From positions 19,130,056 through 19,194,055 of the forward strand of contig NC_135187.1 in assembly GCF_041146795.1 (NCBI RefSeq): a stretch of 64,000 bases of DNA, read 5' to 3'. Both the position numbers and the translations under genes were made by a program. Of the stretch, positions 18,004 through 55,649 are shown piece after piece. The notes under the pieces are model-generated. The model worked only from the letters and a program-made list of their open reading frames with translations. It did not search any database and had not been told where the DNA came from. The stretch's first letter is position 1, and every line of letters begins with the position of its first letter. This DNA is from Maylandia zebra (lineage: Eukaryota > Chordata > Actinopteri > Cichliformes > Cichlidae).

Positions 18004-18044
18004 GAAAAAGATCAGCGCAAAATCACAGACAGACAGTACGCAAA

Positions 18045-24720: not shown

Positions 24721-24726
24721 TTTATT
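24721..24726 (-). promoter_or_regulatory. AATAAA hexamer overlapping the ZF1 stop codon
   Basis: The minus strand reads AGG AAA TAA ATG at the end of ZF1, so a canonical AATAAA overlaps the stop. Whether it is used is unknown; a normal downstream signal may exist. Confidence 0.4.
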
Positions 24727-27700
24727 TCCTTGCCACAAGTTCCAGGAGGGCGGAAGTGATTTTGTCCAGGTTGTTAGAGTACCGGGGTCCTCTGGGCATC
24801 CTGGATTCTTGATCCATGTGGAGGGGAGGTGCAGAAGAGTGAGAGTCGAAAAACTCTCCAACAGGAGGCTGGTAGTCACGAGAGGGCAGGGATTCTGGAA
24901 ACCTTTCAGGATAAAAGGGCGGCTCATCTAAGCGGTTTGTATGAGGAGTTCCAGATTCCTCTGACAAAAAAAAAAAAAAAAGAGGAATGAAATTGAATTA
25001 CATGAAAGAAAGTGGAATCAGCCACACTTCCTCTGACACAGGGAAGCTGAATATACAACTTATTGTTTATTATCTTATTTAACGATGCAATCAAATTCAT
25101 TCAGTACATAAAATCAAAAGCTCAACTTGGACACCTTTGCAAACTATGCCTCATTATACATAAATTCAACTAAACTATCCTAAAAGGATACCACAACAAA
25201 ACTCAAAATACATTCAAAGAAGAAAATCCCATCAAATTTCATCAAAACCTCAAAGTTCATAAGTTTATTTTATTAATACGTCAATAAATTGGCATTCGAC
25301 CCATACAACAACACATACAGCACAATTCCAGACAAAAGGCATGATTATACCCCTCCCTCTCCTGTTTATCACACCTGAACCATGCCTGTTGTTAATGTGA
25401 TGAACTATACCTGTGGTTATTCTGCTACAGACACCTGTTCATGTGGAACTGACTTGAAGAATATATTCTAATAGAGGGGCCCTCCCAGAGCCCTGACCCA
25501 AATCCCACACATCACCTGAGGGATACCATGGAGAAAATTACGTCAGCTGGTCGAAGCTCTGGTGTGGATGAACTGAAAGCCTTGCTGACTGGAACATTAG
25601 GGAAAACTTTGCAGGTATTATAGAAACTGATCTGCCCTACCTTTCTGGTATAAGCAGCTCTACTAATGGATGAAAGAGTCTTTAAAGAAGCAACTATTGA
25701 GTGGCCATCTACTGTCTGCCTTTATTTTGAGCTGTACTTATTTTTGCCTAAAATCTTTCAAGAAAATTATGCTCGTGTTATTTTTATCGATGTCTAACTT
25801 TTATAAAAGACTATTGAACCCTAATGGGCTTAAATAAACTGCACTGTGCACATACCTTCAAAGCGGCCTCTTTTTGAGTATCTGGACTCTTCGTGTGCAG
25901 GGGGGGGATAAACATTGTGCCGCTCCTCTGGAAGATGCTCACGCTGCCTCCAGTCTCTGAAGTCGAGGTCTTCTGGCTGTCTGTGGTGCGAATCATCTCT
26001 CATGGTCCTTTCGAACGGCGGCTGTCGAGGGTCCAGCTCCATGTTGCTGTAGTTTCTGGGGATCCCTTCTCGACCGTGGCTGTTCTGCTACCATGACAAA
26101 ACCATACGTTTTGTTAATATAAGCAAAGTCTTTGTGTTCTTCTACTAATATTATATTAAAAAGACAGGCGGTGTGCAGAATGACACATACCACAGCTTTC
26201 TCCATCTTTTTTGTTTTGAATTCTTTAAGCAGGTTGCAAAGTTTACTTTTCAAGAAGTCAGCCTCTTCAGCATTCTCAATTTCAATGTTGCTCTAAGAAA
26301 ATGTGAAAGGGAAAAAAAACAACACACTGAGAACTCTTTGAGTGAATAGTTGCATAACAAAAACATGTGCAAGTCGCCAATAAGGATTAATCATCTTACC
26401 AGCATATCAAAGACGCCCTCCGACTCAGAGCCTCCTCTTTGGTTCATTTCAGGATGATGTGGACCCTAAAAAAGCAAAAGGTCTTGCTCAAATAAAGATT
26501 TGTTTTACTGGATATTACTCTACTGTGATGTGAAAATAAACTACGGTACCTGTGGTTCTCTGTAGATGTCTGAAAATTGTCCTCCACTCATTGGTGCACT
26601 ACCTGGCCTTGGGTCACCTCCAAACTTTGGAATTGGAGATCCATAATTATCCCCATACCTTAAAGCAGCAATCAAACATGTTTTTTTGGGGTTTTTAAAA
26701 AAAAAAAAAAAAAGCCCACAACACTTACAAAAAAACAACTACAATTTTTACACTTACATCTCCCTTGTCCCTTCCACTTCCTCTGGAGTAGCATCAGAGA
26801 AGCGGCTCTTTCTTTTCCTTTTACCGTGAACATCATCTTCGGCGCCTCCTTTCAGGAACCGCCTGAATGGCTCTGGGATGTTAGAAATGGCTCTGCCAAC
26901 ATCCATGTGTCTCTGTGAGGCTGGGCCTCCTGCTCTCCTATCAACTCCCTCATCCTGATGTACCTCTCTCATCTCATGACGATAATCTTGAATTATATTG
27001 AACAAATTGTCACGTGATCGGTCCCCCTCCATAGATGCAGAGAAGTTCCTCCTCCTGGCTTCTGGTTCACTTGATCCCTGTCTACCTGCTTTGTTCATAC
27101 CGTCGTGCCTATCAGCTTCCCTCTCCAGGGACCACCGCAGTTTATCAACTTCAGGGTACATGGCCTGGGAGGGTGAATACTCAGAACGACCGTTCCCACC
27201 CCTGACATCCTCAGAGTGGAAATCCTGAACAGACTCTCTTTCTGGATAGGCTCTTCTATAAGGAGGCACCCCCTCAGGGTAATAGTCAGACTGACCGAGG
27301 CCACCAGGCAGCTCCTCCCTAAAATCATACTTGGGAGCATCACCTTGCTCAAGTGCCAAACATCTTTGTGAATCGCCACCATATCCCTCTTCATACTGAT
27401 GACGATAATCAGAGTCCATGTAGCCTTCTCTGTACGCATGGCCTTCCCTAAAATCCGACCTTCGCGGTTCATCTCTGGTGCGCTCATTGCTAAGCCTGTT
27501 CTCCCGCTGGCTGCGCCTGTCTACGTTCATGTTAGGGTCATTCGGAGGAAATGCAGATGCGTTTGGGTAACTTGAGGCATGCTTCCTTCGGTGATAGTCC
27601 TTGAGTTCGGGTAGGAGTGGTGGCAAATCTTGTGGGTTCGTCTGCTCCCTGTTTTGCCTCGGCCTTTGGGAAGCTAATAATAAAGTCATAATTAGAGAAA

Positions 27701-30700
27701 AATACAACCAAACGTTTACTTTTTAACCATGTTTACTATCAATCAAGGTACCTCTTGAGCTGTTTGATCTACTCTCGTTCCCCTTTTTGAACAATGACTG
27801 GGGGAAAAAAAAACATGAATAATAAACATTTACTGTATGTAACAAAATGTATAGAATTTTAGAAGCACAAAAAATATGGTGTGTAATCTGGGTAATTCAT
27901 CTGGCATACCTTTGGAGTCCCTCTCCCATCCTGTCTCTCTATTATTTCTGCTTTGGCGCGCATAATCTTCCCCCCGAGGGTTTGTACAGAGGGTCTATCC
28001 CAGGTCACCAAGTCAGGCCGCTTCAATTCCTACATAGACAGAAAGGGAATGTGATCTCTCTTTGCTTTAACATCTTATTATAAAGAAAACAGAATAACAA
28101 AGAAGTATTTAAGTAATGCTCTGAATGCTTTACCACATATTTCTGCCTGTGTTTGCGTCCAATCACATGACAGACCATTTCTGCAAGGACGGCTGACTGA
28201 TTACAGAGCTTACATAAGTATTTGGGGCCTATTTGTCGGTCACTAGGAGGCCCCTCTTCCAAAAAGTTCAAACCTGGAAATTAAGAACAAGCAAAAAGTT
28301 AAAAACAATCAAATAATCTGGTATTTTAAAAAAAACAAAAAACATCTGCTTAAAACTTTCTGCAAAGTTATTCACCAATGATAGGCTCATCCAGATTCAG
28401 GTAATCCAGGTACTCTATAATATCCTTAAACTCCGGTACGTGTCTTCTGACAGACCGTCCTGGGAAGCCACATGCTAATAGTTAGCAAAAAGACAAAAAC
28501 TACACAGTGTTTTTAAAAGTCATCATCACAGTATAACAATAAGACAAGAGCAATACTAACTGCTTCAATTTAAACTCCTTATTAGAGGATGAGTCTTTAT
28601 TAAGGGTTAACAGGGGTAAGGGAAGATTATAAGTCAATATAAGACAAGGCCTGGTGTATTGTAGCTGCAGCTGAATGGTATAAAATCTTCAGCTTAGATC
28701 TTAACTATCTTAGATTTCTGATAAACTATCATCTAATGTATGAGCCCCAGTAGAACTTCTAGTCCAGACAGTTTATTTATTTCATGTTGCTTTTTGAATG
28801 TCATCAGACAAGGAAAAAAAATGTTTCCATGATTTTCTGAAACATGTACCTTGTGTGGCATAATGGATTTAATGGCAAAAAACATCTGAACTCTAATGGT
28901 ACCTATATTACCAACTAAGAAATGTTGTTGTTTTTTTTGTTTTTTTACAATATCCCAATATTATTGTATTAAAAATATCCCAATAATGGTGTAAATGTTT
29001 AATTTACTTGTGCAAAAGGCATAAATAAAACAAAGTTATTGAAGTGCATACTTGTACAACATGTTCCTTTATAAAAGACATTACACCAAACTCTGGACAG
29101 ATCTGCAGAGATGTTTACTTATCCTTTCGTCATCTGAGTGTGGAGTATTAGTGCACCCACAGATGTCCTGCCACTAGAATAACTGAATACATATGTATAG
29201 TTGCTAAATTTAGTCAGAGTGGATTTTGAGGGAGTCATACAGACACAGGCTGGCCAGTGCCATCTAATTTTGTGCAAACAGCTTGTTTGACTGACATTTT
29301 TAGAAGTTGTGAAGATTTCCAACAAGCTGCAGCTGTTGCTTGAAGAGCAACACTGGAAAAGCTGCATTTTAGTAGCCATGTGTGGTTTAAGAGCAGTACA
29401 GTATTTTTTCTGATCTTGATACGACAATGCTACACATTTATTTCAGCAACTTATCATGTAACACCATAATTAAATCACAAAAAGGCTGTTAATGCAACCA
29501 AATTTGGCAAAAAGTGCAAAGATCCAGAAAGGAAAAGAAAAACTAAATGAGCGGAGAAACCCAACAAATGCAGATGCTTCTACAAGTGCACTTCATGGTA
29601 AATAGCATCCAGTCACGCTCAGCGGCACGTATACAAACGCAGGCCCAGTTGGTTCTGTTTTTGAATCACGATGGCAAGTGCAAAACATCAAAGTGGCTTT
29701 GAAACAGGGTTCATTCTTGGGGCACGAGTGGCAGGAGCTTTAATCGCTTGAGGCACCAACACGCTCTGCGGCAGTGATCTAATAAGCATGGGTAGGACAT
29801 CAAGTTTGATGCATGAAGGCTGTACGATAATACCTACTGACTCAAGGGCAACAACGTACCGCTGCAAAATCTTCATTGTTTGTTTCCTTGCTATGTCCAC
29901 CTTGTCACGGGTCCTGTAAACTGATGTAGACACACTGCAGCTGCCACAGCTAAGACACATTTTCCTCTGTGTTGGAAACAGGTGGTAGGGAATGTAACAC
30001 TTACATGTATTCAGTTTTTCCCCCACATATGCTGATGTCTCTCTTGCATTCCCATTGGCTGGGTAGTAGACACAGGTCATGGCTGACGTTTCACTGTGAG
30101 CTGTCCTAAACTTCTGACCCTGTCAGAAAATTTCCCCAGCCTCTGTTTTGGTAGAAAAGCTGTTAGAACAGCCAGCTTTGATCCTCTCTCGCTGTAAGAT
30201 GTTGGATCACGGCTTTGGAGCCACAATCAAAGATGGCACCACTGCCATCCATACCCAGCTCCCCGAATATGGGATTTTGGGGGCAGATGCTGATACTTAT
30301 TTTCCATCCTTCCATTCATTTAAAAAAAAAAAAACAAATAATTTTCCACTTATCCAATTCAAGGTGGTGGGGGATCTGGAGTCTATCCCAGGTGGCTTGG
30401 TGTGAGTGTGAGGCAAGGTAAACCCTGGACAGGTCATCAATCCGCAACAGGGTTAACATGGGCAGACAGACAACCATTCACACCTATGGGCAATTTAGAA
30501 TCACCAATTACTTTAACCCCAATAACTGGATGTCTTTGGACTGTGGGAGGACGCTTGAGTACCCGGAGAGAACTCCCGCAGACACAGGGAGAACATGTGA
30601 ACTCCACAGAGAAAGGCCCTGGGTCAAACACTAGATTCAAATGATATGTGTATTATGTATCTGTGAAAGGCCCATATCTGCTGATTTTAATCAGCCAACC

Positions 30701-33700
30701 AATCAGTCAATTCAAATCCTTTTGGGTCATTAAAGGAGTTTTATGGGTTCACCTATGGAAGAGTTTGGGGAAAATTGTTACATAGGTGTAACAATAGCTC
30801 CATATTGCAGTGGTTCTAACAGCGAAATATCCAGTTTAAACTCAAGAAGGGGACAAACATCCCGTTTGGCTTGCCTCGGGAAGGATATCCAGAGTTTAAA
30901 AAAAACCTGCCAAATCATCTACCCACTGTGGCGACTCCTGGTGAATAAAAGAGCAGCTGAAAGTATCTTTTTACACAGGTGTAATCATTTTCACCATTCC
31001 AACTATGGAAGGTTTCAAACTGGGTCCACGTGATGGAAATTTGATCATTAGATGGTTAGAGCGATGCTCTGACATACATCCACATCGCTGCAAGTTTTCT
31101 GTGACCCTGTGGACCCATCTACAGAGATGAGTCCACCAGGTAGAAGTGGAAAAAGTATGCCAAGACTTCTTCTCCGTAGCGTCTTCAGCTGTCCGAGTGT
31201 AATCTTCTACTTACGGCTTTCAAGTTGGTAGTTTGCAGAGTTTACCACCAGCTCTGCAGACCATTGTCACATGGTGTAGCTGTTTACTGTCAGCAGGGGG
31301 CTGACAGTAACAACCAGTGCCCAGGCTTGCTTGGGCTGCTGTTGGTTGGTCCTTCAGGCACCCGCGGAGAGGCTTTTTTTTCTCCCGTTCATGTTAGACT
31401 TCTGCTGTCGGTCCCTTTCCTATTCCAGGCAACTTTTCAACCAGTCAGCACTGGACTTGCATCGTCCACATTGAGCTATGTGCTGTTGGGGCTTTGGAGA
31501 ACCGCACACAAGCGCATTTGCATAGGTTGCCTCTGCGTGGGCAAATACCTACACAAACATAGTACTGTAATTCCCACATTAGACTGCACTTTTCACCACC
31601 ACCAAAACCAAAAGATGGAGTATCTTTTGGAAGAAATGTATTAAATCCCCCAGTTGAAATCCAGACACTTGTTGAATTAATATCCACTTCACTTCTTGGA
31701 GACTGTGTTTACCCACTGAGGTGATTACATACCTTCTGAGCCTTGTTTCCCATTTGCACTCACATCATTAATAGGAACTCTGAAGTCATGTAGTAGCTTT
31801 CCTGACACGTCACCCCTGTTGACATCTTACGTTTTCCTATAATTGTGTTTCATGTTCTTCACTTTCTGTTTGCATTTCTTCATTGCGTGACAGATGCCAT
31901 GAGAGGATTCGTTTCAATACAATGTTCACTCTTCTGGTGCTGCATTCCTTTGTTTGACCAGTGCACACTTATATCTGGAGCATATGTGTACACCTTCATC
32001 ACTCAAAGTTTCTCTTTCCCTGCTGGGAAAGTACCTACCCTAAAAACCCTGTGAAGAACTGTGATGATTCAGAGTTCCAGGAGTGTGGATGCAGAAAAAT
32101 GGGGGTACTACGTCCAACAGTCAGCAAACCTAAGAAAACGTTCTTGCAGTCCTATAGGACCAAATACCAAGGTGCTCTGAAGATGGTCTGGCCCAACGCC
32201 ATAATGAAAAACTTATCTGAATATCAACTTGGAAACATCGAAGCCATGTGACCATTTTAAAGTCCACATTTGTTGGAGCAGAAAGCTGAGTCGATGTGAA
32301 TCCAGTTCCTCATACAGACTTCCATTTCATTTTCAAAAATAAACATGAAATCACTGCACTGTGCTAAATGAAAAGTATAAATCTCTTAAATAAACTTCAA
32401 ATTTCTAACTCTCCATACCCAAATTAAGAAAACAAAATGGCTGAACACACACTGGCAGACAAAAAAGCCACAACATCATCAGTGAGAACACACACTGATG
32501 TTCAAAAACAAGTCCTGACTTGCAGCCGATGTTAACCGATTTGATCACTGATGTTAAGTTTGGGGCTTTGTGTCAGTGGTCCAGATATAACCTGAGATGC
32601 ATCTAAGGAGCCTAAGCCAAACCACCAAAGAAAAAACAAAATCTGGACAAACTATTTGTCCTTACACGTTGACTTCTGGGTATCTTTATACATTTACTTC
32701 TAAACAAAACTGCTGCCCATTCAAACCGGAATGGGCACTATTCACATGTACATTGAATTACCCATCAGAACAGACACATGGCCAGGGAAGGAATGAAAAA
32801 ATAAAAAAATAATAAAAGAGGGAAGATGAATTCTACTTACCAGAAGTTACTAAGCCACTCTCTTTCTGCCAGGAACGAAAGGAGAACAATAAAAATAAAG
32901 TCAATCAGTGCTGGATAAACAACACTGGATGTAGTTCACCTCTGCTACAAACAGAAAAGGAGTTATTTTATGGAATCAAACGCATATTAAAACCAAAACC
33001 ACAGCTCAAATGAGGTGCAGTAAAGGTGCCTGTCCACACCTGTCTTCTTAGTGTGCGTTAGATCATAAAGAGATAAAGCAGTTAAGGACTAAAGAGTTTG
33101 TACTCCAGTCACTTTTCACACAACTGTATAAATTAAACCCCCACCGCGGGAGGTGGGAGTTATATCTGCATGTGAATATATTAATGCAAAAAGCAGGATG
33201 TAGCTTTCTTCAGGATGACCAAAAGTTCTATTGAAACATCTGGAGGGATCCTTCTAGGAACTGTTTATAGGAATGAAATGCGCCAGCACACTGCTGGGGC
33301 TAAACCAAGGTCCAAATAAAACTTTACCATTACAAAAAGCTTCAGTACGGATGTCAAACTGAAGCTGTAGAGGTCTGCAGAGTAGCCTCCTTGCACTTGT
33401 TGTCGTCGTCGTTGTTGGTGGTGGCAGCGCTGCTAGGAAAGTATAAATGTATACCTACGTATACATTTTTCTGGCTCATAGAAAATAAAACCAGTTTTAA
33501 GTAGGTCTGCGCCTCAGCGGAACGCCAAACCAGCACCATCCAAGAATTAGCAGCTGATTTGCCATAGTGGTTAGAAGACAGCCAAAAGACAGGAACTCAG
33601 TTCAAGCAACTTCTGCTTATGTGCTACACAGATTCTGCACTTGGCAATAAGGTCTGCCAAAACATAGCTACCCAAATAACCAAACAGTGGCTGACTTCCT

Positions 33701-36679
33701 CTAGTGTAAAGACAGGAAGAGAAGGGCACCAGTTTAGTTCAGCGAGATGAGCAGGTGACCATATGCCATATGGCCAGAGAGCAGTAGGCCCGGGTTTGAG
33801 TCCCACCCGCGGCCCTTTGCTGCATGTCTTCCCCTATCTCGCTCTCTCCCCGCTTTCCTGTCTCTCGACACTGTCACTATCAACAAAAGAAGAGAAAGTA
33901 AGAAGCTGAAGAAATGTTGCCATGGCTCCACAGTGCACTGTTTTTGTTTTGTATTTTTTAATTCAGTTTGTCTTCCAGGCTTGACTGTACAACAAGTCAC
34001 TTGTTAAATCAGCACGTGTGTCTTGGAAGGCACACTTCCCAACATAATGAACAAGAACAACCAAGAAAGCTCACATGACTTTACCTAGTGGAACAGACCC
34101 GAACCTGGCTCAAAGGCACAGCAGACAAGTTCCTGAAATTTTCTTGGGCATTAACAGGAAGACGTTCAAAGACTTATGAAGCTGACACATCATACATGAC
34201 ATGGTTCAAGACCATTTCCTTTGTGAAACTCCACTGTGTCAGCATAGTCTGTGGCCACTATTAAAAAGAAAAACAAGTTTGTTTTCCTCCTTTAAAACAA
34301 ACACAACTGTCCATTATTGGCGCAAAGTTCAGGATGCATTGATGTGAAGGGGCCACTAAAAAAGGCAGATGGTGGTAGGGGCCTGGTTTTAGTAGAACAT
34401 CTGCATCTGGGGAGGTGAGCAAAGTGTTGAGAAGAAATGTCTGGCTTTTCTTTGCAGAAATCCTTAAACCCCTTCACCCAAAGAACCAACCAAGCCTGCC
34501 TTTTTCAAGACTCCTTCAGAACTTGCCATTTTCAGGTTGTCAGTTGCTCGCTCCAAGAGTAATTGTAGTTGTTTCCCAGACTGAAGGAGAAGAAGAATGC
34601 TGTGTGAAATACACAGCCAGGCAGGCTTTCACACTCTGTTATACATCATCGAACTAAATATTACCCTGTCATCCTTGCACAAACTTACTGCAATGGCGAG
34701 AGACACAGTACTCTTCTGAAATGGCCAATCCAGCTTCTTCATAGCAGTCAAACACAAAGGTGGAAAGCATCCAGCTTTCCTGGTTGATTCTGTAGCTCAA
34801 AACTCACTGAACCCTTGACGGCAACGGCTGAAGAGAGGCAACCCATGTCAACTTTTGTTGTCACTACTCTTGTACTTACTGTAACATGATTTTTTTTTTA
34901 AATCTTCAGAAGAAACAATGTGTTCGACTGTCAAGACTGAAATAAGAAGAGCTGTCAGATGCAAAACCAGGAATTAAACCAGGAGGGGAAAACTGTAGGT
35001 GGGCTTCAAACAAAAAAAAAAATTAAAAGATGTGAGCAGCTTGGAAAACTTGTTTCTCACAGACGTCTGGTACCTGTGGAAATCTGAGACTAAAGAGAAA
35101 GTACATGGAATAATGCAAAAACGATGATGACATCACTTTTGAATACATTTTAAATGACTGCATTACTATTAATGTTTAGCTTTCTACACAAGTAGATTTC
35201 TTGAGTACCTTTATATGTCCTGGGGTGGTCAGGTGTATCTTGTACAGGGTATCACCCCTTAAGGATTTTTCACAGATCTTGATTGAGAAAGAGCAAAAAA
35301 CAGATGAATTAATAACAATAAGCTGACAGACACAAATAGACACACTAAATTAAGCCTTATTCTGTATTTTAGTTACAAAAGGTAACTTAACTCTAAACTA
35401 TATGACCACTTTTAACCCTTGAATACTGTTCATTTTATATGCTTTCATACTATAGTCTGTGTCAAAATTGAACTGGGCCAAGAATTCCTTCACATCAAGT
35501 GTATAAAACAAATTCTAATATACATATATCTTTATAAAGTATAAATAGTCTATCTGACATTAATAAAATGATGAATAGTCCTTAATTGATGTCTCAGAGA
35601 ACAGGGTGAGTGTTTTTTAGATTTTACAACACTTATATTTGGAGAAAAACATGAGATATCACAAAATATGATGACCTATTTTACTTAAGGTGAAAATGTA
35701 GCACCTGTAATGTTTAAAAGATATTATAATGAGATGGAAAGAATGTTACAACCATTAAAACACTCAACTCTTCATTCTGGATCATATAAAAATCCTTATG
35801 ACTACCATATATCAAAACAAATTTATTAAATACTTAGAGCAGGTACTTAGCATGTGTGGGACACATTTTAGCTTTTCGTGTACAACTGGGATTTTTGGAG
35901 ACCTGCAATGTAAATGTGTCTGTCTTAAAAGCACTTTGAGTTAACTTCTGTTTAAATGTGCTATTGGCTATAAATAAAACAGATTTGATGGTTAACACAA
36001 AAAGGTTCAGACATTTTTCATAGTGCATGTGTTCATGATTTTACAAGATTCATTTGGCTACTTACTGAACTTAGAAGAGAAACAAATAGCGCACTAGTAT
36101 CTGGTATATCAATACCAGCGTTGTTATCGATACTACAGATATTTGGATCGATTCGCCCACCTCTACAACAAAGGCAATTTTCGTGACTTAACGAAGGTTC
36201 CTCTGCCACCTTTGTCCCGTAAAAAATACGCACAACTTGGTATGTACAGTTTTAGTTTCAGGGTTGCCTAAAATCAACGTTTCTTTGATTTTCCCCACAG
36301 TGATGGATCCAGAATCCTTCTGAGTAAATACGCGACCCAGATCCATTCAAATTTTAATTTTATTTTTGCCTCACTTCATGAAAAGTCATGACATTTTCAA
36401 GCTAAAAGAATCACATGCTGAATCACTGCAGTCAAACGTAAAAATTGATGGAATTTGACCCGAACAGGTTAAAAAGAGCAGGACTAATTCACGTCCGATG
36501 TCATATACCTCCAGAGGCTAGCTAAAAACGTTAGCTTTGCTCGCGGCACGCTTCCTTTTTTCCGGGAACCTCGCTTTCGCCAAATTATTACGTCTCTCAG
36601 CTAACGTTAGCATGCTTACCTCGCATTCAATAAACGCGATATCCTCCTCCTCATATGGCGTTTCGAAGTTATCCATCAT
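24722..36679 (-). CDS. ZF1: U1/matrin-type zinc-finger protein, 13 exons, 740 aa, family not named
   Basis: Exons: 36679-36620, 35277-35209, 32865-32841, 28474-28376, 28273-28134, 28029-27910, 27797-27752, 27673-26758, 26658-26550, 26465-26400, 26292-26191, 26087-25856, 24960-24722. They sum to 2223 bp, in frame throughout with GT-AG ends. Residue 1 may be either of two adjacent ATGs (36679 or 36676). Finger 1 is C19-x2-C22-x12-H35-x5-H41; finger 2 is C105-x2-C108-x11-H120-x5-H126, both of the U1/matrin RNA-associated type. After finger 2 comes a helical stretch (KIMRAKAEIIERQDGRG). Residues about 186-490 are rich in R, D, E, Y and S; a basic KRKRKSRF motif near 480 could be a nuclear signal. 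A predicted helix lies at 551-584. The C terminus is LDKITSALLELVARK. Composition suggests a nuclear RNA-associated protein; this is inference. It shares its finger-2 module and intron phases with ZF2. Confidence 0.88.
30331..30640 (+). repeat. Common vertebrate dispersed repeat (non-autonomous element fragment)
   Basis: Runs such as gggcaatttagaatcaccaa, tctttggactgtgggaggac and agggagaacatgtgaactcc are diagnostic of an abundant fish and amphibian interspersed repeat. It lies in ZF1 intron 3, antisense to the gene. Family name not assigned. Confidence 0.75.
31284..31310. repeat. Short perfect hairpin, 11-bp arms, 5-nt loop
   Basis: TTACTGTCAGC at 31284-31294 is the exact reverse complement of 31300-31310; the loop is agggg. 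It lies in ZF1 intron 3. No element or RNA family recognised. Confidence 0.7.
33735..33930 (+). mobile_element. tRNA-derived SINE copy
   Basis: A B-box-like segment (gggtttgagtcccac) is followed by the tail common to many fish SINEs (ggccctttgctgcatgtctt, then tctctctcc and cctgtctctcgacactgtc). It lies in ZF1 intron 2, antisense to ZF1. The A box is diverged. A poly-purine A-rich end follows. Confidence 0.75.
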
Positions 36680-36975
36680 GAACTTTAATCAGTGGCCGTA
36701 CCCTCTAGAGGTAAAGCTACCTGCTTAGCGACTGTTTACTAGCTAAATCGCCTGAACCAAGCTAGTTAACTGTTGTGATCAGCAAGCGTTATTGTTGTAA
36801 CACTAGCGAATTGGCGTGTTTTGTTTCTTTTGTTTTCTATATTAAATACTTTGTATCATATCCAACAAATGTTTACACAGCTATTGTATTATTAAGAAAC
36901 CAGGGGAAAAATAGCTTCGTCTTCCTGGTTGATGGGCGGACGCTCGCTCTAAGAAACCCACGTGACCGAGGCTGT
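36680..36975 (-). promoter_or_regulatory. ZF1 5' UTR and promoter region
   Basis: Upstream of the ZF1 ATG the sequence is richer in CpG than its surroundings. It contains an E-box/USF-type CACGTGAC at 36960-36967. No TATA box is evident at a suitable place. The RPRD1A 3' UTR lies within about 1 kb upstream, so the intergenic space is short. Confidence 0.45.
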
Positions 36976-40900: not shown

Positions 40901-43900
40901 AAGCAAGCCAAATCTTTAACTGCCTGATAATAAAATAGTGAGAACTGCTAGATTGTCTCCCAGCAGAAAAAGGGCATGACAACTTCAAACAGGAAATGGC
41001 CTTAATTCCCAGATTGCTGGCCAGGAACATTTGCTTAGAACAACTGTTCTAAGATCATTGTTGATGTTTTTCCTCCTTTCCTTTTATAGAGGTCCTCACG
41101 CTTGCTAATGATCAGTTAATTCCTGTGGAAGCACTAAGAGTATACTTAATTTTTCACAGGAATCTAGATGTTAAGTGTTTTCTGTAATGTGCAGTATATC
41201 AGAGTGGTTCAACAACATTTTCTCAGTCTAAACAACACATGTTCTGTCTAAAGTTTGGTATAAAGTGCGCAGAGCTTCCTTACCTGTGATCCTGTGAAGC
41301 AGTGACGTGTCCTGCACCTCAGCAGGAAGGGAGGAGATGCGCTGACGCAGCACTGAGTCGCCAGAAGCAGCGTTCTCCAGCTCCTGCAGAGCTCGGATTA
41401 ACTCTGCCGTCTGAGGTATAGCGAGCATGATAAAGGCAAGAGGTGAGGGGGGAGCAGAAGAAGGTATTTACACTCAGGAGGAGACACAAAGGCAAACATG
41501 AAAACACAGACAGCTGTAAATCATTAACTAGCATGTGTGTGGATCAAAGTGTTATATGATTAGCACTCTGTATTTATAACTGCTCTGTATAACAAGGACA
41601 GCACCTGTGGGGGCTCGGTTGGAGAGCTCTGGGAGGCAAAGCCTTCATCATCTGGCTGGATCTCCTCATATGACCTCTTCTTTGTCTTCTTTTCTCCATC
41701 TAAGATTTATAAAAAGCAAGAAAAGCAAAACATAACAAGTCAAAAGTCCAGTTTGAAGGTGTGCGTTTTATGTATTATACTACATCTTTAGCCACTTTAA
41801 AGCCACAAGCCTGATTAGCTGCATGTTTAGAAATAAAGCAAACATTTGCAAAATAGTGCAAGTAAATAATATAACTATGCTTATCAAGTTTAAACCTCTA
41901 GGCACACAGCACACTTGCTATAATTGAATGGTAAGCACTACTGACAAGCTGGTACAGGTTTTGGCTCGTTGAACTTACACAGGACTTGCGAGAGCTGATC
42001 GAGCAGGTTATTCTCATACACGGCTCTCTCCTGCCAGATGGATAAAACCCGACCCAGCTGTTTCTTACAGCCCTCCTCACCATCTCTGCACGGGAACACA
42101 CAGGAAAGAAAAGAAAGAAAGAAAGAACACACGCTTTAAACAGCTTTGCAAACCTGAAGTCAGGACTGGACAAAATTGAATTTAAAAAAAAAAAAAAAAA
42201 AAATCAGTTCTTGGATAGAAATTCTTTAAATGGGAAAATATTAGGGATGCACCTCATTTACCGCCACAGGCCAACTGGCCACTTCTGTCACATTTTCTTT
42301 AATGGAAATAAGTTCAAAGATGGACAGCTGATGGCCAAAATGTCATTTTAAACATTGTAATCAGCTCATAATACATCAGTGTGTGCATCCCTAGAACATA
42401 CAGTATGTGTGTGTTTATACACGTCTTCTCATCAAGCCTACTTATGGCTGCCACCCTCAACCAGTTCTAAAATGTTACTTAAATTTCATACATTTAAAAT
42501 CCAAAATGATGACAAAATGAGAAAGTTGACATCAGGACAACCATCCATGCCTTTGTCCAATAAAAACTGACCTGTACACATGTTTGAATGCATCAACGAT
42601 GACTGGAGCAAAGTCCTGGGTGAACTCTGGTCCTTTCCTCTTGCTGTTTTGGATGACGTCATTGGCCAAATACAGGAAGGTCAGCTTGCGCGATACCTGA
42701 GCTGCACATGTTTGAAAAAAACAAAGAAACACACATACTATCTGATTATGATTTACAAAAAGGTACAACACAACAATGCCTATTAATGGGCAAGCGCATT
42801 TTAACCACTAAAGAACTAAAAACAAAAAACAAAAGTCATGACATACAAAAAATGAAATAGAGCCGATTTAAATCTTCAACAGTTTTTTTATTATTGTATA
42901 TAGTATTTTATTCTATACAGTTGTGTACAGCATCTTATTCTTATTCTATTCCAGTGTTCTCTAATTTTTGCTATATAACTTTGCACTGTCCACTTTCTGC
43001 TGTAACAAAACAAATTTCCCACATGTGGGACTAATAAAGGTCATCTTATCTTTAATATGCAAAGCCACGTTTAAAAAATTCAAGATACTCGTTATGCTTC
43101 ACTATAAGCAGGGCTATGACCTTTGCTAATTTAATATGAGCAATGCACCAGATGCACAGGCGAACTGTGCAGTCACATCAGCTGCATGATGCAGAACAAG
43201 GTGGCCCTGCAGAAAGAATAATTAAAAAAAAAAAAAAAGATTTAATCTGTGGATATTATTTCACAAGTTTAGTGCACGATATGAAGAAGCAATCTGACAA
43301 AAATGCATGTTCAGATTTGTATGCCCCAGGATTTTGAAGGCATCAAAGAGATCAAAAACAAAAGCTGATTCTTCTTACTATTTTTAACAATAGAGCACTG
43401 GCTCTTGCCTGACTTTGTTCTGGAGAAGCCGAGTGCCCGATTGAGTTCCAGTGAAGGATACTTACACCCCTTCTCGGTTTGTTGTTTTTATGATAAACTA
43501 ACTGATGCACAAGCCTTTGTTGTTGTTGGACGAGACACAGTCGACACTGAGGTGAGTGTAAAGCTCCGTGGAGAGCCATTTCTATCCCCACTTGCCATTA
43601 ACACTGGTCTCAGTCACCACCCAAAATACCTCACCCACAAGAGGTATCATTAGGTTGTTGACTAGCACCCCGAGGAAAAATGCACCATTATTAGCTACAA
43701 TTACAGTAATGCCTGATGTCCCTACAACCCAACTCACTGAATAAATTCAACAACTCCATTATGTACCGTCTACTTAATAAACTTTGTGAACATTTTCTTA
43801 TAAAAAAAAAAAAAAAAAAATCATTGACAGTCATCAGATACTATGAAAATCAGAAAAAAGTTAGATCCACCAGTCATTGCTTATATTTTATCACACAACA

Positions 43901-44977
43901 ATGTTCAATAGTCTTTCTCCAGTGAAATGATTGACACAGCTAAATGAGCCAAAAAAAGCAATGCAATTAAAGAATAAATATGCACTTACTCTTAAAACTG
44001 TTACATATGTTTAATTAAAACAATGTCATGTGGTTCGTTTAACATCGACACATTTACTTATGCTTCTCCTTATATAATATATGCACCATTGCAACTATGC
44101 ATTTTTTAAAAATATTATTATTTAGGGCATTTCACTTTTATTAGGTGGTGCATTGATGATTAGAGGAGAGTGAGTGCGTCTTGTATGTGGTCATCTCAAG
44201 CAAACGGCTCTGGCTGTGAGCACAATCTCCACCCACGTGCTAGTCAAACCTTTTGTTTGTGCGGAGTAGCCTATCAGAAGAAAGCTGGCTTAAAGCAAAG
44301 CTATACTGTGTATGAATTGCGGTGATTTATCAAGGGTTAGTATAGGATTATTTTGATGAGTTAATCACGCAAAGCTACTGTAGCAGAGAAAAGAAATGAG
44401 CATAAGTGGCTTCCTTTATGCTTTATAGTAAAGCTCATTGTAACTGTTGATGTGGGTTTAATTTAAAGCTATTCCCTCAGGTGTTATAAAGTTTAATTTA
44501 GTGCAGCTTTAACTGATCGAGACTTACTATAAGCAAAGATGGGAGATTATGGAGATTTTCTAACACAAACACATTTAAGGGAACACACGTTGTCGTCACT
44601 TTTCGACAATGCTACTTAGACAAAGCAGTGAAAACCTTTGGCTAGTGACCGAAAGTTGCCAGCCTTTAGCAGCCACCGTGCTAACAGGGACTCTGTGTTT
44701 TAACTTTAACAGCAGTTTGGTCTGGCAGTTTTAGCCAGAGCTAGCCTGCAGCTACATGTTACTCACTCTCTGAAGCATGCTCGCTGTGTTTGTTTGGAGG
44801 AACTCCTCGGCTCTCACCAGCCTTACCTTTTTTCAGTTCGTTGAACCAAACGTTGACAATGGTCTTCGAGTGTTTTCTGTGGTGGATGAGCCACAGCGAC
44901 AGTGTCTGTACACTTTGCTGAGAGTTGCTAAGCTCGGACAGTTTCTTCTCTAAAGCCGCCTCGGAGAAAGCTGACAT
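37968..44977 (-). CDS. rprd1a: RPRD1A, regulation of nuclear pre-mRNA domain protein 1A (294 aa, seven exons)
   Basis: RPRD1 proteins bind the phosphorylated RNA polymerase II CTD through an N-terminal CID and help recruit the RPAP2 phosphatase. Exons: 44977-44827, 42701-42572, 42085-41979, 41699-41605, 41410-41284, 39894-39719, 38066-37968; the joined frame is 885 bp. The CID opens MSAFSEAALEKKLSELSNSQ and includes RKLTFLYLANDVIQNSKRKG and CKKQLGRVLSIWQERAVYEN. These match RPRD1A better than RPRD1B (for example the FAPVIVDAFKHV and LGRVLSIW segments). A linker with YEEIQPDDEG follows. Then come the dimerising coiled coils (ACMLLADYSGRLAAEIDDRR; EYKRKLARVTQVRKELRSR). The C terminus is shorter than the mammalian ~312 aa: it stops soon after LRSRLNNLPEGHYNSSN, lacking the usual LPNVTG tail. 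A different last exon could exist outside what I recognised. Confidence 0.95.
40353..41175 (+). mobile_element. Degenerate, internally deleted Tc1-like transposon
   Basis: After a TA the sequence opens cagtcgtgacaaaactaaat, the start typical of one fish Tc1 group. The interior contains segments of antisense Tc1 transposase (tcagtcaggttcatgtctgg, tgcaacaccttgaatcttat, atcatcctcttgcatgatcc). The far end near ttttcacaggaat is approximate. It lies in the RPRD1A intron between exons 5 and 6. Non-functional. Confidence 0.6.
42885..43056 (+). mobile_element. LINE 3' tail
   Basis: Ends caaatttcccacatgtggga, then ctaataaaggtcatcttatc, a terminal sequence shared by 5'-truncated fish LINE copies. It lies in RPRD1A intron 1, opposite in sense to the gene. 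Only the tail remains. Confidence 0.65.
43057..44826 (-). other. Rest of RPRD1A intron 1
   Basis: AT-rich intronic sequence with A runs at about 43225 and 43802. No exon, RNA gene or further element recognised. Confidence 0.5.
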
Positions 44978-45270
44978 CTCGGCGAGATTAGGGGAGGGAG
45001 TGCGAGGCTAGACGCTGGGAGAGGCTGCTGTAAGGTTTCTCCCAAATGTGTGGACTACAGCACGCTAGCCGGTCACAGGGTCTTTGCAGGAGTTTCAGCC
45101 ATCCAAACTAAATGTCGCAACCTGACTCTGCTACACAAAAGGATGGCTGGTAATACTGACTAGCTATCTCCGTCCTCTCTGTGACTGCTCGGTTGCCTGT
45201 GCTTGGGACTGCTTCTTCCTCCTTATCTTAATGGCAGCTGGGGATAAAACTTTTGGTTACCTTAGCGCCA
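44978..45270 (-). promoter_or_regulatory. rprd1a: RPRD1A 5' UTR and promoter
   Basis: The region upstream of the ATG is comparatively GC-rich, lacks an obvious TATA box, and contains an ETS-like CTTCCGG motif (about 45270). This fits a housekeeping promoter. The start site is not visible. Confidence 0.45.
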
Positions 45271-45844
45271 CCTTCCGGACTGGAGTGCGGGTCGCATTGG
45301 TTATTACGCTAACCAACGTTAATATGCTTAAAATCTGAAGTTAAATACAAAAAATCTGCAATATTCATCTACCATTAGATAGTAATTCATTTTTCTGAAA
45401 TGCTAATTTAAATATCAATCTCTATTGTTAATATATTGGACATCAGAAACATGTAATTCCACAAATTTCTTTACTATCCAGACTGACGAGTATTGCATAT
45501 ATTTATACAGTCTAAGATTCATGATGTCCTCCTCCTCTCAACTTTTACTTCTGCCTCTTATTCCTCTTACATTTCTTAGGAGGCCACTGCAGTGATATCA
45601 ACCTGTGTTTATTTTCTTCGTGACCACCTCTGTTGTACAATCAATCATATGCAGATATTTTAAAGTTGAGTACATGATATTGTGTTGTTCCTGTTCCAAT
45701 CTATTGCCCAAAGTTTACATGCATCTGCATAAACATTAATATAATGTATTTTTTGATGTATTCACTGTTCATAATAAATATTCTGTGCATATAGAAATTA
45801 GTTACTATCTAGCACTACCTGGATTTACTGGAAGTGTGATTCAC

Positions 45845-46240
45845 ATTCATAGATAGCTCACAAATTTAGTACATGCTGTTTCCATAGGAGCCAGGTGCTG
45901 CTAATCAAATGCACTTGATTAACTGATCATCAGCAAGTGTGAGCACCTCTATATAAGCAGAGGTTTTGGCAATTTACTGGTAGGCAACTGATCTGTGTTA
46001 ACACAATGCCACAATCAATCCAGCAGTAAAGAGCCCCAAATTGTATCTTTTCTGTGTCCAGTGTTGCTGCAAAGAAAAGATACAATTTCAAAAAGACTGA
46101 ACAAATGTGGCTTGTTTGAAATGGTCGCCAGGAGAAAAGAACACGGCAGCACAGCTTAGGTTTGCAAAGTTGCACCACAAGACCTCAGAACTGAAAAGAT
46201 GAGCTTGCACAGAAAGCCACTACGTTATTGCTGGTAAACA
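45845..46240 (+). mobile_element. Internally deleted Tc1 copy (intergenic)
   Basis: The 5' part, with gagccaggtgctgctaatca, aatgcacttgattaactgat and tataagcagaggttttggca, is the leader of a common fish Tc1 family. Most of the transposase gene is missing. A short 3'-ward piece (gcaaagttgcaccacaagac) resembles the later coding region. It contains a 16-bp inverted repeat (46038-46053 with 46073-46088). Confidence 0.7.
46038..46088. repeat. 16-bp perfect inverted repeat, 19-nt loop
   Basis: AAATTGTATCTTTTCT at 46038-46053 is the exact reverse complement of 46073-46088. It lies in the deleted Tc1 copy, where the transposase gene would be. It may be a secondary insertion or rearrangement. Confidence 0.75.
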
Positions 46241-47254
46241 TGGTTCTGCAAGGTATTGAATAATGGGCGTACTACAGAGTCAAACTTACTCCAAAGCAAA
46301 CACAGAACCATTAACGTGTTTTAATATTTACAGTAAGACTGGCTTTTTACAGTGATCTGCATTAATCGCTGAGTGGACAAAGTTTGTGTTTCCTCGCTGA
46401 ATTTGAGCAAGCTTGTGAGTATTACGCCACAGGACATTACATAACCTACCGTGACTGCTTGAAAGGAAAAATAACAAACTCTTTTGTTTGAACCTGCAAG
46501 GAAAACGATATTTGGTCACATAATTGGTTAAAGTTCAAACTCTACTGGTGCAAAAAAAAAATAAAATAAAAATTCAGCCACACGGGTCAGAACTGTTTTA
46601 AAAAACTGTTTTTTAATTTCATAAAAGCAGTCAAACATATCTCAATATTTCTCCTAAAAAAATACAGTGAATCCACTTAAACCTAATGTGATGTTTCACA
46701 CATTTGTCTTGTTTTCTGGAGTTAAAAAGGCATAAATGTAGATTTAAAAAACAAAAAAACAAAAACAAAAAACACTGCTGTAACGGTCAAAAACAGAAAA
46801 CAAATAGCCAGTTTGAACAACTTCATAACAAACACAATAAAAGAATAAAAATATACACACAGGCAGCTGTTTAGTGTTTACGGGCACGTTTCTCAGCCTT
46901 CACTGAATGTGAACTTGGAAATACACGAGTGAGTTCTATTTAAATGCTCAGTATCTTCAATTCTTCTACTTCTCTTATAACGACTGGATTAGTGGATAAG
47001 GAGTGCTGTTTCACCTCATTAGTGCTCTTTGACTTTCAGTCTCCACAAAGTTTAAACCTAAAAGTCCCAGCAGACAAAAAAAAAAACAAAAAAAAAAAAA
47101 CCAAAAAAAAACAAAAACCCGACACTGCTTATATTACTGCACCTCCATCAGCAGGCTCACATTCATTACAGAAATCAGCAGAACTATAATAAAAAAATAA
47201 AGAAAGTCACATTGCAAGTAAATCCCCCGCTGGACCATCCAAATGTGATTTGAT

Positions 47255-48433
47255 TCAGCTGAAATACAGATCAGTTTGGGACACAGCACACTGAGGTTTA
47301 GAAGGTTGGCTGAAGGCATAAGAGTGTGTTAGACTCCAGTCCGTAACACTACTGCAGACCGGAGGGAGAAAGTGCTGGCCAGGGTTTGCCAGAGAGCCAG
47401 TGTTGTAGCTGGGGTAAGACATCCACCCACGCGGTCCTTGACTGGCTTCATAAGATGTAGTCGGTATCCCATAATTGTGTGGAGCTGCCTGGGCACAGTC
47501 ATTGGTGAGCGCTGTGTAGTGTGCAATGCTGCCGCTGTACACACAGGGATCTACTGATTGAGTTAGCATGTTCACACCAGCACTATTTATATAAGGACCC
47601 AGATGACCCCATACATCGTAATACCCACTTACACTGCCCGTCTGAAGACTTGCATTATCGCACGGCATGTGCGGATTCTGAAAGTGTTGTTGGTAATAAT
47701 GTGGACCAGCGTCTATGCGTGCCTCTTCTCTCAAACCCTGCTCTCTTGTTCCATTCTTATCCTCTGCAGCTGGCTTATACCCCTCCTCGGTCCAACACTC
47801 CCTATGTCCGTAGGAAGAGTTAGAGGAAGATGGCACAGCTAATATTGTAAAGTTTCCTTCTGGCGTGTACCCACCAGTCTCTGGACCTCCATCACAGGGG
47901 CTGTGCTGTAGTGGAGAGGTTTCTGCATGGTTTAGTTCAGATGACAAACCATCACAGTCTAACTCCACAATCTCTGACCCCGGGGAGGACGTGAGATCTA
48001 AATTAAAGGGAGGGGATGTAGCTGATGGAGGGAGGCTTTTGCTGCTGAAAGACATCCTCTTCATCAGTAATAAACCTTTGGTAATAGGCAGGCTGACATT
48101 AAAAACAGTCTCTCTCTTTGCTTTTACTCTTTTCTTCCTCTTTGACTTCATTAAAGTGCATTTCTCTGACATGCCTTCAGCGGATGTCTGGTTCATGCTC
48201 AGCCCTTAGACATAAAGAAAAGGAATAAGTTAAAAGCAGTTTGCTGAGAAAGTGTGAACTCTAGCTTGCAAAGATACAAACCTTTGGCATCCACTTCCTT
48301 TTTTTTAATGTCAGCACCTTTCCATCCAGATTGCAGCATCTTTATGCCTGGAAAATATCCAAAACAATACAGTGGCATACAAAAATAAAATAAAATAAAG
48401 AAATGCAAGGAACACTGGGTGGGGGGGGGGGGG

Positions 48434-48465
<32 letters not shown>

Positions 48466-49536
48466 CAAGTGGGCATTAATGAATACAAGAAAATCTAGAG
48501 AGCCGACATCCCTGACAAGTGGGAAACTGCACTGAACAAAGGACACACTCTGCATGGTGAGTGCCAAAGATGCACTGACAAAACGTGATCCAGGCAAAAT
48601 TCAGACGGCATAAAAGTTACACTTCTCTGTAAAAATCCAGTTATAGCATAACTCTACACATAAGTATACAGTTGTATAAATATACATACACTCGCTTACA
48701 TTTTTAAATAAGTGGTGGTAAAGGTTCCACAATGTCTTTTGACATTTTTAAATTGGTTGGGATGTTCAGGAATGACCCAGGAACACATTCACAGTCCACA
48801 GGTTTATACTGCAAGAAAGAAACCTGTGCTCCAAAAATTGACACCGTCAAGCTGAACATAAAACCAAAGCGTTTTATGGTCAGAAAGATTGAGCTGTTTG
48901 CAGCTATGAAGGTGAGGTTTTCAAACCTGAGAGCATGGCACCAACTTTCAAGTATTGTGGTGGTAGCACATATTTCAACTTCACCTCAAATTAACAGCTA
49001 GATGGTTCAAATTGAACACAGATGTGCCAATTATATAATGGTTCAAAAAGTTAATAAAAATTGGTTTTGGGGATGGATAAAGCAGGCTAATATTAAGCTG
49101 CTGGAATGGCCTTCCCGAAGTCCCGACCTCAACTAATTTGTAAATTTGTGGACTACACTTAAAGCTGGTTCTGTGCCAGGAAACAAACAGATTTAAATGA
49201 ACTCAAAGAATCAATCACTTCACCCTGGAAAAAGAACAGTTCAAAGAAATCATTAAAAGCCCAGAAATGCCATGATATTCATGCCCAGGATGACTGGATG
49301 TAACCTTCTTCTCTCTTTTTTTTTTTTCTCCTTAAAAAAGATTTCTGACCACAACTGTATTTAGAGTATAACACTTTCAACAAATCACTGAGTAGGTACC
49401 TGTGTCTGTGCCTGTAGAACAACTCTACGATATGTCTATTTTGTCCTGCTTTTTAACTGAATGTTTCAATAATGACACGTCAGGAAAAAAAAAAGCCTGT
49501 TTTTTGCAGTGGTTTGATCTATCACAGACCTGCTGT

Positions 49537-49569
<33 letters not shown>

Positions 49570-51703
49570 AGGCAGGTAAATGTTACACTTACAAGAGCAG
49601 AGATGTAGAAAATGAAGTGAATGGTTTATGGCCAAGCAAAAGAAAAATAACCCATACTTACACCAGTGGTAACTTTTGCCAGTGAGTAGCGCACAAAGGT
49701 TTTCTGGAACATGCACTACCTGAGAACATGAGAGGTTTATAAACTAAAGGACAGACGAGTACAGGTGAAACCAACACTGTTTGGGGGAAAAGACACTGAG
49801 AGTCACGTCACATGTGGCAGAATCCCAGCAGGAAATTCTGTGCTGCAAAGAAAAAGGGATACCTTCAACTCTCCTCGCCCCGTTTCTCGCTCCACTTTCT
49901 TTGCCAAAGACTGAAGAAGGTGAGGTTTGTCTTTAAGCTCCGCAGTCACCTCCTCAGGATGAGTTTCCATCTATAAAAAATTATATTCACTAACTTTAAA
50001 CTATACTTACCTCGCTTTTTGCATGCATAATACTAAAGAACCTTTGCTATAATCTATTCTGGTAACTGATCCAGAACAAACAGACCAAGTAGTTGATGAG
50101 GTGTGAGGGGCTGGTCAGGTGTTCAGTGATGTCCTTCTTGTTGGATTTGATGCGGCAGCAGTGGCATAAGAAACAGTAAGAGCAGCCATCTTCACTTCTA
50201 TACTCGACCACACAGTCGAGACCTGTTGAAAACATGAGAAACAAAAAAAATAAAGAACATTTCCATTTCATGGGAATTACGATCACCAGCTGTGGTTCGA
50301 GACTGGAGTTGGACTGTGAGATGAGAAACTTTACTGGAGAGGCACATGAAAGAGTTTGCAGTCCGCCACAACCGTGCAACTTCAAGGCCTTTTTTTATTA
50401 TTATTTTTTGTTTTTTTTAACTCTTTTGGTGCCATTCTTTGTGTGTTCTCACCTATGAGAGTCTTGGTTCCAGTGTAGTCATCAGGAAAGCTGCTGGTGT
50501 GCTCTGAAAACACAAAGGGTTCGGGAGAATCCAACTGGGATGTGAACGGGTTGACTAAGTAGACCTCTGACTTAACAGAAGGATCAAAGTTTGCATGCAT
50601 CAGCTGCGGTGCTGGCTTGTTAGTGTGCGCTGAGATCTTGCCTGAGTTTGTGTCAGCCTTGAAGGATTTCTTGGACCGTGTGGGCTGGTTCTGTGCAAAC
50701 ACTACAGTCCTCTGGGATTCAGTGGGATAGTGCAAAGCTGTAGTCTCTGGATAACTCTCAGTTTCACCCTGTGCATCTCTTAAGGAACCTATGAGAGTTA
50801 CTGCTGCAGTATCAGAGAGATGAAAAGATACCTATGAAGGGAAAAATAATCACGTGCATGCAGAAAAATTGCCAAAAACATAAAAAGTGAGAGTAATCAA
50901 GAGAAGACAGTGAGATGGGGAAAGAACAGTCAAACATTCACTGACCGTCATTTTCACTGGATGTTTCCATCCTCTGGTATACACCATCTTCAACCTCTAA
51001 CAACTTCGTATGAAGGTGCAAAAACATATGAGCATCCACAATAATTTGCAGTTTATGACTACAAGAAAGCACGCACAATAAAAGCAACAGACCTGGATGT
51101 CTCCCGGTCCCTCTTTTTCCTCAAGCTTCTTGGCCATCTCCATCAGCGGCCACGCCAGCTTGGACAGGTCGGAGCTCTCCTGCCATTTTGATACCAAGTG
51201 AGGGTGCCAGGTTTTCTTTTAAAAACAAACAAACCATAATCTGTTAGTAAAATCCAACGCAGCACATGATCTGCTGTCACCAATCCTTCTCCAGTACTAC
51301 TTACAATGTAGTTGAATCTGTGGAGACTTCCCAGTATGTGGTTACGCATGTCAGCCTTACTGAGGCGACACACGCACGCCCCACACACGTACAGCGCTTC
51401 TGTGCTCCACGCACCAGCCTTCACACATTCTGTAATGCAGCCCAAGCCTAAGTGCACATTAAAAACACATATTACTTCAGCACACACTGAATAAAGAACC
51501 GTTTACACACTAAAAGTGGGATTTGCTGCGGCACACCTATTATGGGTTGTAGTCTCTCCTTGTTGCTCAGGTACGCCTTCAGAGAATCCAGCAGCTGGCT
51601 TCTTCTTAAAACACCTACAAATGGAGGAATTACAGAAAGAGAATGGGCTATATGCAGCAAGCTTACATACAGTTAGTAGAAGGCATGACTTACCTGGCTG
51701 CAT
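47255..51703 (-). CDS. ZF2: protein with two matrin-like zinc-finger modules, 11 coding exons, 700 aa, family not named
   Basis: Coding exons: 51703-51694 (exon starts 51710), 51614-51537, 51447-51305, 51215-51093, 50996-50946, 50831-50453, 50222-50086, 49970-49863, 49719-49662, 48347-48282, 48204-47255. They sum to 2103 bp without interruption. Start MQPGVLRRSQLLDSLKAYLS is the only in-frame ATG in the first coding exon. Module A: C51-x2-C54-x11-H66-x5-H72 followed by a helical stretch ending KKLEEKEGPGDIQ. Module B: C278-x2-C281-x14-H296-x5-H302 followed by LAKKVERETGRGELK. Between them is a Ser/Thr-rich linker. The last exon encodes a basic patch (KSKRKKRVKAKR) and a long Tyr/Ser/Gly/Pro-rich tail without recognised domain. 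Function unknown; nuclear location is inferred from the basic patch. It is homologous to ZF1 over the module. Confidence 0.85.
48421..48463. repeat. G run followed by A run
   Basis: About 13 G followed by about 30 A, in a ZF2 intron. Such tracts are prone to assembly and sequencing error in length. Confidence 0.8.
48668..49361 (+). mobile_element. Degenerate Tc1-like transposon in a ZF2 intron
   Basis: The ends carry tacagttgt and its reverse complement acaactgta. Inside, segments such as ttaagctgctggaatggcct, tcccgacctcaact and atttgtggactacacttaaa correspond to the 3' half of a Tc1 transposase gene (the SPDLNPIE region) on the plus strand. Many changes make it non-coding. It lies between ZF2 exons 49719-49662 and 48347-48282. 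Confidence 0.7.
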
Positions 51704-55230: not shown

Positions 55231-55649
55231 TTCTAAGGTCATGAGAGAGGTCGCACCTTCTCTTTCTGATATGTGGTATGGTAAACACATCTATATCTGT
55301 TTGAGTATAAGAGCCTTTTGTTTAGGTGAACTGCTGGACTCCCTAGTGCCAGCAGGTCTGGGGAGCCTTCGCAGGGTCACCTTTTGACACACACACACAT
55401 ACATAACACTTCTATTTTTGGAGTGTATTTTTTATGTATCTGTATTATATTATACATACACATTAAAAGTGAATCTCTGTCCAAAAAATGCACTCACTTT
55501 ACTTCTTACTCACTATGAGCATCATTCATTATTCTCCCCCAGTAATTAAGATTAGGATATGTATTTTTTTATTCCAATCCATTCTTCTTTTGCAATAGTA
55601 GTCTTTTAAGATTATTTAAATAACCTTTATCAGATTTGATGGTTTTGTT

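What the first reader, a model, noticed from the sequence alone, without database searches (positions are those of the whole stretch)
24722..51703. Exon-conserved zinc-finger module shared by ZF1 (one copy) and ZF2 (two copies)
Each copy follows the same plan: an IIG/LIG-L motif whose glycine codon is split by a phase-1 intron; a C-x2-C-x(11-14)-H-x5-H finger; a phase-0 intron just after the finger (Y-V, Y-I, Y-L); then a second exon of 108-123 bp encoding a helix that ends G-x-G (GRGTPK, GPGDIQ, GRGELK) at phase 0. The first exons are 140, 143 and 137 bp. Equal phases plus sequence echoes point to one duplicated two-exon unit, on both sides of RPRD1A.
Basis: partly seen in the sequence, partly recalled or inferred. 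Interest (0 to 1): 0.75.

Follow-up and report, generated by a model that had tools for sequence, protein, structure and literature searches.

The report
Ten-copy zinc-finger exon cassette array
Two neighbouring genes in what looks like a fish genome share a zinc-finger building block that sits on a fixed set of exons, and the same block is repeated seven more times just outside the window and once on another contig, so this looks like an old, duplicated gene cassette rather than a coincidence.

The parts
28376..28459 (-). ZF1 pre-finger exon, phase 1-1, ends EPIIG (Gly split)
28134..28273 (-). ZF1 finger exon, 140 bp, phase 1-0
   Evidence: motif scan
27910..28029 (-). ZF1 helix exon, 120 bp, phase 0-0, ends GRGTPK
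27752..27797 (-). ZF1 third exon, 46 nt, phase 0-1 (SLFKKGNESRSNSSR/G)
24722..27674 (-). rest of ZF1: charged low-complexity exons to the stop codon
   Evidence: no Pfam family at E 0.01 for 26757-27674
51694..51703 (-). ZF2 start codon and first coding bases (ATGCAGCCAG, phase 1 donor)
   Evidence: read directly
51537..51614 (-). ZF2a pre-finger exon, phase 1-1, ends QPIIG
   Evidence: read directly; not found by the rule (weak donor)
51305..51447 (-). ZF2a finger exon, 143 bp, phase 1-0
51093..51215 (-). ZF2a helix exon, 123 bp, phase 0-0, ends GPGDIQ
50946..51003 (-). ZF2a third exon, 58 nt, phase 0-1
50453..50788 (-). ZF2b pre-finger (long linker) exon, phase 1-1, ends KTLIG
   Evidence: donor; acceptor read
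50086..50222 (-). ZF2b finger exon, 137 bp, phase 1-0
49863..49970 (-). ZF2b helix exon, 108 bp, phase 0-0, ends GRGELK
49662..49719 (-). ZF2b third exon, 58 nt, phase 0-1
47255..48204 (-). ZF2 terminal coding exon, Tyr/Ser/Pro-rich
   Evidence: read; no Pfam family at E 0.01
63488..64000 (-). end of a terminal exon downstream of the seven-copy array (the open frame reaches to extended coordinate 64855; the array's finger exons lie at extended coordinates 67409-97935, beyond the window end)
   Evidence: that it belongs to the array gene is inferred

Best explanation
A four-exon cassette coding one matrin/U1-type zinc finger plus a helix has been duplicated in tandem along this chromosome: once in ZF1, twice in ZF2, seven times in the gene (or genes) next door, with one relative on contig C11. 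Shown: homology of the finger exon, conserved phases, zinc ligands kept in all 11 copies. Inferred: because the cassette starts and ends in phase 1 and its helix exon is 0-0, unequal crossing-over or exon loss leaves the reading frame intact, which is how the array grew. Inferred, less sure: ZF1 and the C11 protein bind structured RNA through a basic helix end, while most array fingers have lost that surface and serve as zinc-stabilised folding or protein-contact units in a long, otherwise disordered protein.
Against: Profile E-values of 84k (0.016) and 70k (0.1) lie within the noise of shuffled controls (best 0.011 to 0.18; reversed 0.2), so those two rest on the motif scan, position and splice signals. 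Helix exons of window and array do not match each other as profiles (E 0.064); those of 97k and 84k match no other by shuffling. Over the whole finger the charge contrast is weaker: C11 +2 equals 70k +2 and is below ZF2a +3. In the tree no branch reaches the tool's mark of good support (0 of 8); ZF1 with C11 has 84/80, and the array is not shown to be one clade. No transcript, no second genome, no binding data.
Confidence: 0.78

Rival explanations
1. The resemblance is chance: short C2H2 motifs next to splice-like signals are common and the reader picked three.
For: Helix-exon profiles do not match between window and array; genome searches with ZF2a or ZF1 alone do not find the other C21 copies.
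Against: Motif-plus-splice scan returns only copies in 304 kb; the 3-copy profile gives 10 segments under E 0.2 in real frames against 0 in reversed and 1 to 2 in five shuffled sets; hhalign E 1.5e-12.
Confidence: 0.02
2. The upstream stretch is not one array gene but several small tandem genes, each with one to three cassettes, like ZF2.
For: I built no start-to-stop model and identified one terminal frame (to 63491). ZF2 itself reads as a separate two-cassette gene with its own start and stop.
Against: An open frame at 70991-70260 ends in the pre-finger motif LPKVG and joins the 70k cassette in phase.
Confidence: 0.35
3. The cassette is spread by a mobile element that captured it.
For: The neighbourhood holds transposon relics.
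Against: All 10 C21 copies lie on one strand in one 70 kb cluster; genome searches gave one further credible place, on C11, though these searches miss most known copies; three other weak hits showed no matching finger in frames of 40 aa or more.
Confidence: 0.03
4. ZF1 (and C11) are the ancestral single-copy gene and ZF2 plus the array are decaying duplicates.
For: C11 has the shortest branch (0.37) and array branches are long (1.24 to 3.86), though ZF1 is long too (2.28); 72k lacks its helix exon.
Against: Zinc ligands, open frames and splice sites survive in 10 of 10 C21 finger exons, although these exons no longer match each other as DNA.
Confidence: 0.1

Closest known systems
Matrin/U1-type C2H2 fingers (in one search: chains at about residues 42-83 of spliceosome and U2 snRNP entries, which I take from memory to be SF3A2; TUT1, TUT4, TUT7; JAZ/ZNF346 finger 3, 2mkd)
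   Same: C-x2-C ... H-x5-H spacing, strands before a helix; 37 to 41 residues superpose at 1.1 to 1.9 A on the eight best rows. ZF1 aligns to JAZ ZF3 by sequence, E 0.18. An abstract start in a search listing calls ZNF346 an RNA-binding C2H2 protein (PMC9962939).
Zinc-finger exon amplification in teleost piccolo b (PMC3484663; abstract, start of introduction and section 26 read)
   Same: A zinc-finger unit multiplied inside a teleost gene, proposed there to arise by unequal crossing-over; the author knew no other case of extensive domain amplification in one of two teleost ohnologs.
   Different: There a single exon is amplified 8 to 16 times; here a four-exon cassette of another finger type. 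Ohnology of C11 and C21 is not shown here.
Classical tandem C2H2 arrays (KRAB-type and the like)
   Same: Tandem zinc fingers in a cluster.
   Different: Those use H-x3-4-H fingers joined by short linkers in one exon (recalled); here H-x5-H and one finger per exon, about 1 to 7 kb apart within ZF2 and the array.

Membership tests
Matrin/U1-type C2H2 zinc finger | C-x2-C, long loop, H-x5-H | tested here: met
   All 10 C21 copies keep C, C, H, H; loop x10 in 70k and x11 in the other copies (72k read)
Matrin/U1-type C2H2 zinc finger | strand-strand-helix finger fold | tested here: inconclusive
Pfam zf-U1 (PF06220) / zf-met (PF12874) | profile score at or over the curated cut-off | tested here: inconclusive
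   ZF1 module scores 7.7 bits for zf-U1 against cut-off 22; zf-met matches 1 of 10 copies at E 0.009, score not printed
dsRNA-binding JAZ/ZFR-type finger | basic residues around the second His | tested here: inconclusive
   Present in ZF1 (GRKHRQK) and C11 (GWKHCYR); Asp/Glu before the second His in 6 of 7 array copies (72k read); ZFR itself was never reached
dsRNA-binding JAZ/ZFR-type finger | binds double-stranded RNA | not testable with these tools
   none
Teleost ohnolog-specific domain amplification (piccolo b type) | unamplified ohnolog on the partner chromosome | tested here: inconclusive
   One C11 copy in the 80 kb searched, but RPRD1A relatives lie on C20 and C21, not near it
Classical Krueppel-type C2H2 array | H-x3-4-H fingers in tandem in one exon | tested here: not met
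   H-x5-H, one finger per exon

The most novel reading that the evidence does not exclude
A second case, beside piccolo b, of drastic amplification of a zinc-finger domain in one fish paralogue while its partner stays single: a frame-neutral four-exon cassette was multiplied to about ten copies on C21, and the copies turned from basic RNA-type fingers into neutral or acidic ones, making a new kind of long matrin-finger scaffold.
Probability: 0.35. Interest if true: 0.65.

Novelty: new variant of a known kind. Interest (0 to 1): 0.5.

Why it matters
In 2012 the author of the piccolo b study knew of no other extensive domain amplification in one of two teleost ohnologs (PMC3484663, section 26). 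Here ten diverged copies of a multi-exon cassette with fixed phases lie in one chromosome stretch, with a slowly changing relative elsewhere for comparison, so the growth of a domain array, exon loss within it (72k) and the change of finger surface could be traced across fish genomes and tested at the bench.

Tried and rejected
Whole-genome searches with ZF2a found only itself, with ZF1 itself and the C11 place at E 0.27, with the C11 module itself, ZF1 at E 0.055 and 91k at 9.2. They miss most known copies, so further copies elsewhere may exist; the ZF2b query did not complete nor repeated. Of the four other hits, those on C4, C11:35.1 Mb and C18 were read and show no matching finger in frames of 40 aa or more; the C12 hit was not read.

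Ohnology of C11 and C21 was tried through shared neighbours. Open-frame comparison of 80 kb of C11 with 224 kb of C21 gave, in the 60 best rows printed, what look to me like repeat elements; RPRD1A relatives are on C20 (82%) and C21:13.76 Mb (57%), not on C11; an NFYC search stayed unanswered. Left open.

Full report
What was checked. The window is G000:C21:19130056-19194055 of an unnamed 962 Mb genome, which I take for a fish by its gene content (no call tests this). RPRD1A lies between ZF1 and ZF2 (CID and CREPT domains).

What lies outside. An open frame runs off the window's right end on the minus strand (63488-64000). I fetched 80 kb on each side. A profile of the three window finger exons, run over 6,891 open segments of 224 kb, found seven more finger exons at extended window coordinates 97935-97799, 91101-90962, 84871-84732, 78498-78350, 72203-72067, 70172-70045 and 67542-67409, all on the minus strand. 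E-values were 1.1e-7 (67k), 4.8e-6 (72k), 3.2e-5 (97k), 6.9e-5 (78k), 1.9e-4 (91k), 0.016 (84k) and 0.1 (70k); controls gave best values of 0.2 (reversed) and 0.011 to 0.18 (five shuffles), so the last two are not secure on this evidence alone.

A test without profiles. I scanned 304 kb (224 kb of C21, 80 kb of C11), both strands, for C-x2-C-x(10-12)-H-x5-H in an open frame with a split-Gly acceptor 12 to 29 codons before and a phase-0 donor 2 to 6 codons after. It returned 10 places: 9 of the 10 C21 copies and the C11 copy, and no other; the 72k copy is missed, by my count because its acceptor is poor in pyrimidines. The rule was written after seeing the copies, so it measures specificity rather than giving a blind P value.

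The unit has four exons. Before the finger exon stands a 1-1 exon, usually ending PxxG: EPIIG (ZF1), HPIVG, HPLLG, FPLLG and EPIVG (97k, 91k, 78k, 67k) by rule; by direct reading QPIIG (ZF2a), QPAIG (84k) and LPKVG with a GC donor (70k). ZF2b has KTLIG and C11 DCVIG, without the Pro; none was found for 72k. After the finger comes the 0-0 helix exon (9 of 10 C21 copies; 102 to 126 bp; for 84k two acceptors nine bases apart are possible). Then follows a 0-1 exon. It is exactly 58 nt at ZF2a, ZF2b, 91k, 84k, 70k and 67k, that is after 6 of 9 helix exons searched (at ZF2a and ZF2b it was the fifth and fourth of the candidates listed, at 67k the second, at the others the first); 113 of 2000 random starts give such a candidate, hence P 2.4e-6 before allowing for the choice of length. 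At 72k there is no helix exon, but a 58-nt exon of the same phase follows the finger. ZF1 and C11 have 46 nt, 78k has a 49-nt candidate, and for 97k I could choose none.

The relative on C11. G000:C11:21082733-21082873 (+) was found at E 0.27 with ZF1 and 1.7e-13 with the ten-copy profile. It has the same plan: VIG split by a phase-1 intron, finger, phase-0 donor, helix exon ending GRGQIK, then a 0-1 exon (read directly). The 80 kb searched holds one copy. It pairs with ZF1 in the tree (84/80; 82% of bootstraps) and has the shortest branch (0.37), but no branch reaches the tool's mark of good support and the array is unresolved.

How well the parts match. hhalign of window against array finger exons: Prob 97.7, E 1.5e-12. 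Whole modules, scaled to one million letters: C11-91k 9e-11, ZF2b-C11 2e-9, ZF1-C11 7e-9, 91k-78k 5e-8, ZF2a-ZF2b and ZF2a-91k 2e-6, ZF1-ZF2a 0.002, ZF1-ZF2b 0.21. Helix exons: profile comparison not significant (E 0.064); by shuffling, ZF2b-C11, C11-91k and 91k-78k 0 of 2000, ZF1-ZF2b 1, ZF2a-91k 1, ZF2a-ZF2b 3, while 97k and 84k match none. The ten C21 finger exons no longer match each other as DNA at E 1e-3, so the duplications are old, yet all zinc ligands are kept.

Function. The segment from the first zinc His to four residues after the second carries +4 in ZF1, +3 in C11 and +3 in JAZ finger 3; ZF2a +1, ZF2b 0; array copies -2 to +2 in the six computed. Over the whole finger the contrast is weaker (ZF1 +4, ZF2a +3, C11, ZF2b and 70k +2, the other five computed -2 to 0). 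Six of seven array copies have Asp or Glu just before the second His. I read this as RNA-type fingers in ZF1 and C11 and changed surfaces in the array. This is inference.

Place among known things. The nearest process is the zinc-finger exon amplification of teleost piccolo b, whose author knew of no other case in one of two teleost ohnologs (PMC3484663, abstract and section 26). That was in 2012; my one search aimed at later cases returned that paper only. Whether C11 and C21 are ohnologous is not shown.

Limits. One genome, no transcripts, no animal database; the genome search was mostly unreachable and misses most known copies when asked with one sequence; finger plus helix was not folded together.

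Noticed in passing
window 18006-20176 (+): THAP domain (E 2.4e-11) followed by a DDE_Tnp_4 transposase frame (E 1.3e-50) with its HTH: a Harbinger-like element (type recalled).
   Followed up: partly
window 21685-22263 (-): Frame matching Viral_alk_exo (E 5.9e-6) and YqaJ (E 1.8e-4) profiles near the THAP element, possibly another transposon protein.
   Followed up: no
window 59180-60216 (-), and about 81.9-82.9k extended: Tc1-like transposase relic (type recalled; Pfam shows only HTH_38, E 2.8e-5, under its cut-off) in the gap between ZF2 and the array; very similar frames at 82k by eye.
   Followed up: no
window 55624-56654 (+) and C11:21097563-21098697: A repeat with open frames about 80% identical between the two contigs.
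   Followed up: no
window 1816-3209 (-): Frames that I recognise from memory as NFYC; no Pfam match at E 0.01.
   Followed up: no
extended coordinate 72067-71572 (L017): Array copy 72k lacks the helix exon; the 0-0 exon is missing without change of frame.
   Followed up: yes
C20:7360703-7360816 (+): Second RPRD1-type CID exon, 82% identical to the window's.
   Followed up: no
C11:about 21089-21094k (+): Downstream of the C11 relative lie frames that I recognise from memory as TMEM67.
   Followed up: no
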